Shown: piece by piece, positions 5,149 to 63,039 of the stretch
How the letters are laid out: the number at the start of each line of letters is the position of its first letter
How positions within the stretch are numbered: the first letter of the stretch is position 1
Notes under the pieces: model-generated
Database searches by the model: none
The model's input: only the letters and a program-made list of their open reading frames with translations
What the model was told of the DNA's origin: nothing
Program-made: the position numbers and the translations under genes
DNA from: Elusimicrobiota bacterium
Lineage (GTDB): Bacteria > Elusimicrobiota > Elusimicrobia > Elusimicrobiales > UBA9959
Direction of reading: 5' to 3'
DNA: 63,039 nt
Assembly (NCBI GenBank): GCA_012517285.1
Contig: JAAYVG010000043.1
Span: 1 to 63,039 of the forward strand

Positions 5149-5874
5149 ATGAAGAAGAAAATTATAATTATAGTTCTTGTGGCGGCGGTCGCGGGGGTGG
5201 TCGTCTGGGAAACCTCCGCTAAAAAGGATTTCCTTTACGCCGGGACCATAGAAGCCACGGAGGTCGACCTTTCGTCGAGGCTTTCCTCCGTGATAAAAAA
5301 ATTCACCGTAGCCGAAGGGGAGGATGTCAGGCCAGGCCAACTCCTTGCGGAACTCGATTGCGACGAGCTGAAGCTGTCTGCCGATATAGCCGAAAAAGAT
5401 TTCAAAAGGGCCGGGGAGCTTTACAACAGCGGTTCCGTCTCTCGGGAAAATTACGACAGGCTGAAATACAAAAGGGACGACGCCGCCCTGCACCTTTCCT
5501 GGTGCAGGATAAAATCCCCCGTTCCCGGCCGGGTCCTGTATAAGTACAGGGAAGAGGGGGAAATGGTGGCCCCGGGGACTAAACTTCTTACCGTGGCCGA
5601 CCTGTCCGAGGTCTGGACATATGTCTACGTGCCGCACGATCTCCTGGCGAAACTGAACGTGGGAATGGATGTAAAGGGTTTCCTGCCCGAGGCCGCCGAT
5701 AAAGAGTTTCCCGGCCGCGTTTCCGTGATATATCCCGAAGCGGAATTCACGCCCAAGAACGTGCAGACCCGCAAGGAGCGCACACGCCTGGTTTTCGCCG
5801 TGAAAGTTTCTTTTTCAAATACGGATGGGATGCTTAAGCCGGGAATGACCCTGGAGGTGAAACTGCCTGAATGA
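5149..5874 (+). CDS. HlyD/YbhG-type periplasmic adaptor (membrane fusion protein)
   Basis: The 241 aa protein has one N-terminal membrane anchor (residues 3-20), a lipoyl-like barrel-sandwich half (GTIEATEVDLSSRLS... and VPGRVLYKYREEGEMVAPG), a short helical hairpin between them, and a C-terminal beta-barrel ending in KPGMTLEVKLPE. It would link the inner membrane ABC-2 transporter to the TolC-like duct. It is shorter than typical HlyD adaptors because the coiled-coil hairpin is brief. AAGGAG lies about 7 nt before the ATG. Confidence 0.85.
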   Translation: MKKKIIIIVLVAAVAGVVVWETSAKKDFLYAGTIEATEVDLSSRLSSVIKKFTVAEGEDVRPGQLLAELDCDELKLSADIAEKDFKRAGELYNSGSVSRENYDRLKYKRDDAALHLSWCRIKSPVPGRVLYKYREEGEMVAPGTKLLTVADLSEVWTYVYVPHDLLAKLNVGMDVKGFLPEAADKEFPGRVSVIYPEAEFTPKNVQTRKERTRLVFAVKVSFSNTDGMLKPGMTLEVKLPE

Positions 5875-22918: not shown

Positions 22919-22984
22919 CACTATATTTTATAATTTTTAAATGAATAATAATATAATCATCATTTTTTTGTATAATATTATAAT

Positions 22985-23194
22985 ATGGAAAAAATTATAA
23001 AATTGCCAAAAACGCTCGTTGAGTTTTTTAAGGAAGCTTATGCTGAGTTAAAAAAGGTTACATGGTTATCAAGACAGGATGCCATCAAGGCAACATATGG
23101 AGTTTTTATAGTTGTCATATTTTTTGCTATATATGTTGGAATTCTTGATTTTGTGATAAGCAAAATTATGGCTCTTATCATGGGTACGAGATAA
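22985..23194 (+). CDS. secE: Preprotein translocase subunit SecE
   Basis: The 69 aa protein has the amphipathic helix FFKEAYAELKKVTWLSRQDA followed by one membrane segment (about 38-62), as in single-span SecE. It is followed 15 nt later by nusG, the universal gene order. Confidence 0.95.
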   Translation: MEKIIKLPKTLVEFFKEAYAELKKVTWLSRQDAIKATYGVFIVVIFFAIYVGILDFVISKIMALIMGTR

Positions 23195-24917: not shown

Positions 24918-24926
24918 ATCATTAAG

Positions 24927-24971
24927 ATAATACCATACATCCTTTGTTCGGTTGTATGGTATTATTTTTTT
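24927..24971 (+). terminator. Rho-independent terminator after rplA
   Basis: A perfect 13 bp stem (ATAATACCATACA with its complement) closes a loop of about 13 nt and is followed by seven T's. It begins 9 nt after the rplA stop, so secE-nusG-rplK-rplA is a complete transcription unit. Confidence 0.93.
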
Positions 24972-24985
24972 AGTAAAATAATATT

Positions 24986-50587: not shown

Positions 50588-50706
50588 GCAGTGGCCAGAT
50601 AGTGGGTAGTGATCAGTGGACAGTGGTCAGCAAAACAGTGGTCAGTGATCAGTTGTTGATAATAAGTGATTAGCTTGTTTAACTGTCCACTGAATACTGA
50701 ACACTA
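50588..50706. repeat. CAGTGGTCAGTGATCAG-type repeats before metK
   Basis: Degenerate repeats (GTGATCAGTGGACAGTGGTCAG) occupy the left half, with complementary words (AACTGTCCACTGAATACTGAACAC) at the right. The tract resembles 20649-20757. No SAM riboswitch motif is visible in this gap. Confidence 0.65.
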
Positions 50707-50741: not shown

Positions 50742-53230
<2,489 letters not shown>

Positions 53231-60640: not shown

Positions 60641-61474
60641 ATGTGGAATTATACAGATAAGGTTATGGAGCATTTTAAAAATCCTAAAAATGTTGGTGAG
60701 ATAAAGGATGCTGATGCTGTAGGAGAGGTTGGGAGCATAGTTTGTGGCGATGCACTAAAACTCACGTTGAAGATTGATCCACAATCTCACAAAATAATAG
60801 ATGCAAAGTTTAAAACATTTGGCTGTGCAAGTGCCATAGCCTCATCAAGCGCATTGACAGAGATGATAAAGGGCAAAACACTTGAAGAAGCTTCAAAGAT
60901 AACCAATCAGAACATTGCTGAGTATTTAGGTGGACTTCCTGATGAGAAGATGCACTGCTCTGTTATGGGTATGGAGGCTCTTGAGGCTGCAATAGACAAC
61001 TATAATACCAAAAAAGGTGGTAAGAGGATAATAGGGGAGCAGGAGAAAATAATTTGTAAATGCTTTAATGTTTCAGAAAAAACTATATTGAAGGCAATAG
61101 AGCTCAATAATTTAAAAACAGTTGACGAGGTGACCCACTTTACAAAGGCTGGCGGTGGATGTGGGCAGTGTAAGGGTGAAATAGAAAAGATTTTAAAGGA
61201 TTTTTGGGCATCAAAGATAAAAATGAATTTTTCTGATATGACAGTGGTTGAGAAGATCAAGATAATAGAAAAGATATTAAACGATGATATCAATCCTAAA
61301 CTGAAGGCTGATGGTGGATTCTTGGAACTTGTTGATATAGATAACAATAAAATAAAGGTCAAGTTTCTTGGAGCGTGTTCGGTTTGTAAGAGTGCTGATA
61401 CTACCTTTAAGGAAGTTGTAGAAAAAGAATTGAAGAGTAAAATAAATGGTGATATAGAAATTGTTCTTGTATAA
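60641..61474 (+). CDS. nifU: Three-domain iron-sulfur scaffold NifU
   Basis: The 277 aa protein has an IscU-like scaffold (about 1-125, Cys35 in GSIVCGD, a Cys in TFGCASAIAS, a Cys in KMHCSVMG), a central BFD-like [2Fe-2S] domain (CKCFNVSE, then GGGCGQC) and a C-terminal Nfu domain with CSVC (about 205-277). GGAGG precedes the ATG. nifS follows 62 nt later. No nitrogenase genes are nearby, so it likely serves general Fe-S assembly. Confidence 0.94.
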   Translation: MWNYTDKVMEHFKNPKNVGEIKDADAVGEVGSIVCGDALKLTLKIDPQSHKIIDAKFKTFGCASAIASSSALTEMIKGKTLEEASKITNQNIAEYLGGLPDEKMHCSVMGMEALEAAIDNYNTKKGGKRIIGEQEKIICKCFNVSEKTILKAIELNNLKTVDEVTHFTKAGGGCGQCKGEIEKILKDFWASKIKMNFSDMTVVEKIKIIEKILNDDINPKLKADGGFLELVDIDNNKIKVKFLGACSVCKSADTTFKEVVEKELKSKINGDIEIVLV

Positions 61475-61536: not shown

Positions 61537-62733
61537 ATGAAAAAAATATATTATTTTGATAACAATGCTACAACAAGAGTTCACGATGAAGTTAAAAAGG
61601 AAATGGAACCGTTCTTTACAAAACTTTATGGCAATCCATCAAGCATGCATTTCTTTGGTGGTCAGGTGCAGAAGTATGTGGATGAGTCAAGGAAGAAGAT
61701 ATCACTGCTCTTAGGATGTTTGCCAGAGGAGATAATATTTACAAGTTGTGGGACTGAGAGCGATTCAACAGCTATATATTCAGCATTAAAGGTTAATCCT
61801 GATAAAAAGCATATAATAACATCAGCTGTGGAGCATCCTGCTGTGATAAATCTATGTAAACATCTTGAAACTCAAGGGTATTCTGTAACCTATTTAAATG
61901 TTAATGAGGATGGGATGATTGATATCAATGATTTAAAAAGTGCAATAAGACCTGATACCGCTGTTGTCTCAATTATGTGGGCAAACAATGAAACAGGTGT
62001 TATTTTTCCTGTTGAAGAGATAGCTGATATATGCCATGAAAAGGGAGTTCTGTTTCATACCGATGCGGTTCAGGCTGCTGGTAAAATTGATATAGATCTT
62101 TCAAAGAATAAAATAGATATGCTTTCAATATCTGGTCATAAACTTCACTCTCCAAAGGGAATTGGTGTGCTTTTTGTTAGAAAAGGTGTAAAGTTTGCTC
62201 CATTTCTTTTGGGTGGTCATCAGGAAAGAGGTAGAAGGGCTGGAACTGAAAATGTTCCTTATATTGTTGGGCTTGGTAAGGCTAGTGAGATAGCTTTAGC
62301 AAATATGCAAAAAGAAAATGATTATGTAAGAAAGCTCAGAGAAAAGCTTGAGAGAGGACTTGTTGAAAAAATACCTAATACAAGGATAAACGGTCTTAAA
62401 TCTCCAAGGCTTCCTAACACGCTCAGCATAAGCTTTGGTTTTGTTGAGGGGGAGTCTATAATAATGCTTTTGAGTGAAAAGGGTATCTGTGCCTCCACAG
62501 GTTCGGCATGTTCAAGTGGTTCACTTGAACCATCCCATGTCCTTATGGCTATGAAAATCCCGTTTACTCACGCACAGGGGACTGTAAGGTTTTCTTTAAG
62601 TATTTATAACACTGAGGAAGAGGTTGACTACATACTAAAAGTCATGCCTGATGTAATAAAAAGGCTGAGAGAGATATCTGCTTTTAATGATGAAACACCA
62701 CAGTTTGAAAATGCTAAGGATATTCATCATTGA
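61537..62733 (+). CDS. nifS: Cysteine desulfurase (NifS/IscS type)
   Basis: This PLP enzyme (398 aa) has the Lys-containing SGHKLHSPKGIGVLF, the substrate region AGTENVPYIVGLGKA and the active-site Cys loop CASTGSACSSGS. It supplies sulfur to NifU and perhaps the MoaD-like protein. GGAGG lies before the start. Confidence 0.95.
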   Translation: MKKIYYFDNNATTRVHDEVKKEMEPFFTKLYGNPSSMHFFGGQVQKYVDESRKKISLLLGCLPEEIIFTSCGTESDSTAIYSALKVNPDKKHIITSAVEHPAVINLCKHLETQGYSVTYLNVNEDGMIDINDLKSAIRPDTAVVSIMWANNETGVIFPVEEIADICHEKGVLFHTDAVQAAGKIDIDLSKNKIDMLSISGHKLHSPKGIGVLFVRKGVKFAPFLLGGHQERGRRAGTENVPYIVGLGKASEIALANMQKENDYVRKLREKLERGLVEKIPNTRINGLKSPRLPNTLSISFGFVEGESIIMLLSEKGICASTGSACSSGSLEPSHVLMAMKIPFTHAQGTVRFSLSIYNTEEEVDYILKVMPDVIKRLREISAFNDETPQFENAKDIHH

Positions 62734-62833
62734 TTTTTTAGAATAACAATTTAAGACTGAAAAATTTTATTCTGAGATATCATTTTAATAGTGGCCTGAA
62801 TCTGTGCTAATTCTTAAACCAAAAATAAGGGGC

Positions 62834-62861
62834 TTGACAAATTAAAATTATCTGCTATACT
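62834..62861 (+). promoter_or_regulatory. Consensus promoter for the terminal candidate RNA
   Basis: TTGACA (62834-62839), a 16 bp spacer and TATACT (62856-62861) are present. Transcription would begin near 62868. Confidence 0.75.
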
Positions 62862-62867
62862 ATAAAG

Positions 62868-63011
62868 GTAGTTGAGTGAAGTCTGGTTCTTTAGAAGTGA
62901 GGAAGTAGGAAAAGATAAGGTTAGTAGCCGTTGCGGTAGACTTGGCTTAGATGCCAATTATGGCACGATAAAAATAAGAAGTGCCTGTCTGAACTACCGC
63001 AACGGCTTTTT
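62868..63011 (+). ncRNA. Candidate structured RNA or attenuated leader
   Basis: Downstream of the promoter lies about 140 nt without a reading frame. It ends in a perfect 14 bp stem, AGCCGTTGCGGTAG (62926-62939) with its complement (62994-63007), followed by five T's. The stem encloses two smaller hairpins: TTGGC-ttagat-GCCAA (62942-62957) and GGCAC-N14-GTGCC (62962-62985), giving a three-way junction. The 5' part is purine-rich. I could not match it to tRNA, SRP RNA, tmRNA, 6S, RNase P or common riboswitches. The downstream gene is outside the window, so a regulatory leader is also possible. Confidence 0.55.
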
Positions 63012-63039
63012 CATTTCCATTCAAAAGATTGTTCGCTCT

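What the first reader, a model, noticed from the sequence alone, without database searches (positions are those of the whole stretch)
62834..63011. Candidate structured RNA with its own promoter at the right edge
A consensus promoter is followed by about 140 nt with a perfect 14 bp stem enclosing a three-way junction and ending in T's. It resembles none of the RNA classes I checked by eye. It could be an independent small RNA or a terminator-controlled leader of an unseen gene.
Basis: partly seen in the sequence, partly recalled or inferred. Interest (0 to 1): 0.7.

Follow-up and report, generated by a model that had tools for sequence, protein, structure and literature searches.

The report
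Promoter-driven hairpin RNA beside queG
At the end of this contig of a bacterium of the Elusimicrobiota lies what looks like a small stand-alone non-coding RNA gene, with a strong promoter and a hairpin that stops transcription; the same hairpin in its nearest sequenced relative sits behind a c-di-GMP riboswitch, which makes it a modest, lineage-specific new RNA candidate of unknown target.

Summary
TTGACA-16-TATACT with an extended -10 TG lies at 62834-62861, the perfect 14-bp stem at 62926-62939/62994-63007 encloses two small hairpins and runs into TTTTT, and the hairpin folds far better than shuffles (z -7.1). Rfam has no match. The window ends where contig C15 ends. Its last 109 nt overlap the end of contig C7 without a branch, and there the next gene is queG, convergent, with its stop 10 nt past the T run. 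So it is not the leader of an unseen gene; an independent ~145-nt RNA fits best. The hairpin, but not the 58-nt leader, recurs in one relative (same genus; 2 of 341 phylum genomes; 34/39 identity in its 5' half; 23 of 24 pairs kept, none by double compensation). There it follows a c-di-GMP-I-GGC riboswitch, upstream of a 13,077-codon open frame for a surface-like protein. The window RNA has no recognisable aptamer. Most likely it is a lineage-specific small RNA, probably related to a riboswitch terminator; its function is untested. Side finding: a covarying ~45-nt promoter-driven hairpin RNA in 13 related genomes.

The parts
62834..62861 (+). Promoter: TTGACA, 16 nt, TATACT; TG of an extended -10 at 62853-62854
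   Evidence: same promoter type recurrent in related genomes
62868..62925 (+). Leader of the RNA (inferred 5' end ~62868), with a weak hairpin at about 62882-62909; no homologue found
   Evidence: Fold z -2.97; no similarity to the aptamer of the relative: 918/2000 shuffles as good; no Rfam match
62926..62939 (+). 5' arm of the 14-bp outer stem
   Evidence: conserved in G001
62942..62957 (+). Inner hairpin 1, UUGGC-N6-GCCAA
   Evidence: all 5 pairs kept in G001, one as U-G
62962..62985 (+). Inner hairpin 2, GGCAC...GUGCC
   Evidence: all 5 pairs kept in G001, one as G-U
62994..63007 (+). 3' arm of the 14-bp outer stem
63007..63011 (+). T run that makes the hairpin an intrinsic-terminator-like structure
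   Evidence: Sequence
61537..62733 (+). Upstream gene nifS (cysteine desulfurase-like; a nifU-like gene at 60641-61474 precedes it)
63021..63039 (-). Last codons of convergent queG (epoxyqueuosine reductase); the gene continues on contig C7 (L003:7069-7902)
   Evidence: unbranched 109-nt contig overlap

Best explanation
A short, independently transcribed non-coding RNA of about 145 nt lies between nifS and convergent queG. RNA polymerase starts at a strong promoter near 62868, makes a 58-nt leader, then a 14-bp hairpin with a three-way junction, and stops in the T run at 63007-63011. The conserved and probably functional part is the hairpin: it ends the transcript and is likely to stabilise the product, which I think acts as a small RNA in trans (inferred, not shown; about 0.4). 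The hairpin is shared with the sister species, where it is the first strong hairpin with a T run after a c-di-GMP-I-GGC riboswitch. The window copy is therefore probably related to a riboswitch terminator, the part in front of it having been exchanged in one of the two lineages. Shown: anatomy, stability, position, one homologue. Inferred: transcription, termination, any action.
For: Promoter and hairpin as described. The downstream gene is convergent and the RNA ends 9 nt before its stop codon, so nothing is left for it to lead. The contig junction is a plain overlap shared by no other contig end, whereas branch points of this assembly show as shared 141-nt ends. The same hairpin stands in G001 behind the same kind of promoter, in a genome whose NifS is only 78% identical; model R2 finds it only in G000 and G001. 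G001 carries RF03167 between promoter and hairpin. One open frame runs through the hairpin in both genomes, but the first five codons that differ all change the amino acid (my reading), so no peptide is being conserved.
Against: No transcript data. Only one homologue and no compensatory change. The leader, 40% of the RNA, is not conserved. Part of the identity in the 5' half could reflect recent exchange between the two lineages. A perfect hairpin between two convergent genes could also be just a terminator.
Confidence: 0.55

Rival explanations
1. Terminator only: the hairpin is the shared, two-way transcription stop between convergent nifS and queG; the short promoter transcript is a by-product without a role of its own.
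For: Convergent arrangement, hairpin 9 nt from the queG stop codon, T run on the + strand. On the - strand the hairpin is as stable (-38.1 kcal/mol). Terminators need no wide conservation.
Against: A strong promoter of a recurrent type lies within 200 nt before the T run. Inner-junction sequence is conserved in a relative at a different locus, which a plain terminator does not require. On the - strand no T run follows.
Confidence: 0.22
2. Decayed riboswitch: a c-di-GMP riboswitch unit like that of G001 lost its aptamer and its target operon in this genome; promoter and hairpin are left over and have no function.
For: G001 has promoter, RF03167 aptamer and the same hairpin. The surface-protein gene further downstream in G001 has no match in G000, and G000 has no RF03167 match although 30 of 61 genomes searched do.
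Against: Promoter and 14-bp stem are intact, which a relic would hardly keep. The leader shows no trace of the aptamer (918/2000 shuffles as good). The locus is not syntenic with the G001 unit. G000 still has GGDEF proteins.
Confidence: 0.15
3. Attenuator of antisense transcription: the leader and the hairpin 5' arm can pair in partial transcripts; when they do, polymerase reads through and makes antisense RNA to queG, birA and nadC.
For: Partial transcripts of 82-122 nt are predicted to fold into a leader-hairpin helix that excludes the terminator. queG, birA and nadC lie head-on downstream. Antisense-acting riboswitches are described as a model in PMC9943018.
Against: The leader-hairpin pairing is no better than with shuffled hairpins (101/400). 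The full-length fold is the terminator by a wide margin. The leader is not conserved.
Confidence: 0.06

Closest known systems
c-di-GMP-I-GGC riboswitch with its terminator-like hairpin (Rfam RF03167), as in G001:C6:230589-230826
   Same: Same promoter type and the same hairpin (34/39 identity in the 5' half, 23 of 24 pairs kept)
   Different: The window RNA has no aptamer and no gene downstream in its direction; the locus is not syntenic
Terminator-like hairpins of riboswitches ahead of exported and surface-protein genes in the same family (GGCCGUUUCnGCUGUCUUCGGG...GAAACGGC-UUUU)
   Same: Similar start and end of the stem (GCCGUU...AACGGC), promoter type and T run
   Different: Their model scores the window hairpin at chance level (13.6 bits, E 0.22); the CUUCGG segment that pairs with the aptamer's 3' strand is absent
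Stand-alone bacterial small RNAs with intrinsic terminators (general kind)
   Same: Own promoter, no open frame needed, terminator hairpin, intergenic
   Different: Unusually long perfect stem with an inner three-way junction; known in one genus only; no target known

Membership tests
c-di-GMP-I / c-di-GMP-I-GGC riboswitch | Conserved aptamer (RF01051 / RF03167) | tested here: not met
   No match in 62730-63039 up to E 5; none for RF03167 in the genome; best RF01051 match in the genome 21.1 bits, below cut-off and elsewhere
c-di-GMP-I / c-di-GMP-I-GGC riboswitch | Regulated gene downstream in the same direction | tested here: not met
   Next genes queG, birA, nadC are convergent
Intrinsic terminator | Stable GC-containing hairpin followed at once by a T run | tested here: met
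   14-bp stem, -39.5 kcal/mol, TTTTT; activity not testable here
Independent small RNA gene | Own promoter and own terminator, no downstream gene in the same direction | tested here: met
   (by sequence only)
Independent small RNA gene | A discrete transcript | not testable with these tools
   No RNA data available
Structured RNA conserved in evolution | Compensatory changes in the stems | tested here: inconclusive
   Two sequences only: 21 pairs unchanged, 2 changed on one side and still paired, 1 broken, 0 double changes
Any other Rfam family (6S, SRP, tmRNA, RNase P, known riboswitches) | Match to the covariance model | tested here: not met
   Only a tRNA in the whole window reaches its cut-off; best sub-threshold match at the locus is a microRNA model on the - strand, 17.7 bits against a cut-off of 60
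Antisense-acting riboswitch | Ligand-controlled read-through antisense to a convergent gene | tested here: inconclusive
   Arrangement fits; the alternative pairing is not better than chance; no ligand known

The most novel reading that the evidence does not exclude
The hairpin is a portable effector module that one species places under a c-di-GMP riboswitch and the other under a different 58-nt leader, which would itself be an undescribed sensor controlling a stand-alone small RNA or antisense read-through into queG.
Probability: 0.06. Interest if true: 0.75.

Novelty: new member of a known kind. Interest (0 to 1): 0.35.

Why it matters
Little seems to be written on regulatory RNAs of the Elusimicrobiota (6 papers in the library hold both words, none with either in its title). 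If the RNA is real, it is a lineage-specific small RNA whose hairpin stands in the terminator position of a c-di-GMP riboswitch unit in the sister species, a possible case of a small RNA arising from a riboswitch terminator. More practically, the work shows a promoter class in this family that leads straight to non-coding RNA candidates, including a covarying short hairpin RNA in 13 related genomes.

Tried and rejected
Leader of an unseen gene: rejected, next gene convergent. Contig break at a repeat, so that queG adjacency would be unsafe: tested with all contig ends; C15/C7 is a lone 109-nt overlap, like several others of 31-141 nt in this assembly, while branch points share 141 nt. Remnant of the aptamer in the leader: by eye GUCUGGUU...GAAG looked like an aptamer end, but the alignment was no better than shuffles. 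Homology to the riboswitch terminators of other genera: chance level (its other window match, 52087-52150, is antisense inside an ahcY-like gene). Viral homologue (L177): a chance 20-mer in a phage gene, no hairpin. Phages and plasmids: none. Same hairpin elsewhere: none beyond G001, by BLAST in 341 phylum genomes or by covariance model in 60 relatives. The region downstream of nifS in G001 and four other relatives: no such RNA seen. Protein-coding reading: the open frame through leader and hairpin has no ATG, and the codon changes are not synonymous (my reading). A second perfect 14-bp repeat in the window (22925-23003): pure A/T, folds no better than shuffles. One own-genome promoter pattern was wrongly spaced and found nothing; with correct spacing only two sites match, the second before a response-regulator-like gene.

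Full report
What is there. A promoter TTGACA-16-TATACT with an extended -10 TG lies at 62834-62861. A perfect 14-bp stem, 62926-62939 with 62994-63007, encloses UUGGC-N6-GCCAA and GGCAC-N14-GUGCC and runs into TTTTT. The 87-nt hairpin folds to -39.5 kcal/mol, z -7.05, MFE and centroid agreeing; the whole inferred RNA has z -5.1 and the leader alone z -3.0. In 40 dinucleotide shuffles of the window no perfect 14-bp inverted repeat of such spacing arose. A consensus promoter match by itself is not above chance in this AT-rich region; what lends this one weight is that nearly the same stretch recurs in many genomes of the family, ahead of riboswitches and short hairpin RNAs.

Where it lies. The window is the whole contig C15 of the assembly G000. 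Its last 109 nt are the reverse complement of the end of contig C7. I collected both ends of all 52 contigs: branch points of this assembly show as ends that share 141 nt, whereas C15 and C7 share a single plain overlap with each other and with nothing else. C7 therefore most likely continues C15. There queG ends head-on, its stop codon at 63021-63023 in window coordinates, followed by birA and nadC in the same convergent direction. Upstream is nifS. So the RNA has no gene to lead. NifS relatives put the genome in the Elusimicrobiota.

Relatives. Over 341 genomes of the phylum, BLAST with the hairpin finds it only in G000 and in G001, which is of the same genus. A covariance model of the two finds no third copy in 60 relatives. 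In G001 the 5' half is 34/39 identical although NifS is only 78% identical at the protein level. Of 24 pairs 21 are unchanged, two stay paired through a change to G-U, one is broken, none is doubly compensated. This supports but does not prove selection on the structure.

The riboswitch link. In G001 a c-di-GMP-I-GGC riboswitch (RF03167, 53 bits against a gathering score of 59; over the cut-off of RF01051) lies between the promoter and this hairpin. Downstream follow, in the same direction, a nucleotidyltransferase-like gene, an exported HEAT-repeat-like protein and a surface-like protein in a 13,077-codon open frame (functions judged by eye). RF03167 occurs in 30 of 61 genomes searched, ahead of PorV-like outer-membrane proteins and of other exported or surface proteins, mostly followed by a terminator-like hairpin (functions judged by eye). 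In the second group the hairpin carries CUUCGG, which pairs with the aptamer's 3' strand better than all but 0-35 of 400 shuffles, but in G001 the pairing is no better than chance (82/400). The window leader is not an aptamer by Rfam and shows no trace of one by alignment. The window hairpin is not recognised by a model of the second group (13.6 bits, E 0.22). I therefore claim kinship with the G001 hairpin only, and treat descent from a riboswitch terminator as likely but unproven.

How it works. Most likely it is transcribed from its own promoter and stops at its own hairpin; a role in trans as a small RNA is my inference. A plain two-way terminator between convergent genes is the main rival; a dead riboswitch remnant and an attenuator of antisense transcription are others. 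Partial transcripts can fold into a leader-hairpin helix that excludes the terminator, which would suit attenuation, but the pairing is no better than with shuffled sequence (101/400).

Side finding. Thirteen related genomes carry, directly behind the same promoter type, a ~45-nt hairpin of a 9-bp stem, an asymmetric internal loop and a 3-bp inner stem. Nine of 12 pairs show changes on both sides and 99.4% of cells are paired, against 77% in shuffles and 30-56% when slid. Eight of these loci were in an Rfam search at E 0.05 and had no such match. This is better supported by covariation than the RNA of the finding itself and deserves its own study.

Verdict. A real structural feature, probably a genus-specific small RNA gene; ordinary in kind, with an interesting link to a c-di-GMP riboswitch in the sister species.

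Noticed in passing
L005, L006, L009, L010, L014, L015, L016, L018, L019, L021, L022, L023, L025 (about locus position 1500, just behind the promoter match): A short (~45 nt) promoter-driven hairpin RNA in 13 same-family genomes, with 9 of 12 pairs changed on both sides, near different genes; the 8 loci scanned had no Rfam match for it.
   Followed up: partly
L114-L143, L113: c-di-GMP-I-GGC riboswitches (many below the Rfam gathering score) are widespread in this family, ahead of PorV-like outer-membrane proteins and of exported or surface proteins; in the first group open frames start within a few nt of the aptamer and run through the terminator-like hairpin.
   Followed up: partly
G001:C6, around 228500-228844 (L178): A surface-like protein in an open frame of 13,077 codons downstream of the riboswitch-hairpin unit; no match in G000.
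   Followed up: no
window 50605-50700: Strong inverted repeat (z -4.8) of CAGTGGTCAGTGATCAGT-like units directly upstream of a SAM synthetase-like gene (50742-51941); no Rfam match.
   Followed up: no
window 24920-24975: Near-perfect long hairpin followed by a T run (z -6.2), a strong terminator-like structure.
   Followed up: no
L003 about 5370-5600: Intergenic tract of degenerate short repeats (CATCAAGATGAA-like and CTTCTGTCCTCTG-like); similar degenerate tracts stand in intergenic regions of relatives.
   Followed up: no
L033 and G001: G001 has a contig of the same length (169,807) as the record titled 'Elusimicrobium minutum isolate TT109_36_37', with the same nifS region; it is probably that assembly. 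Whether the species name fits was not tested.
   Followed up: no
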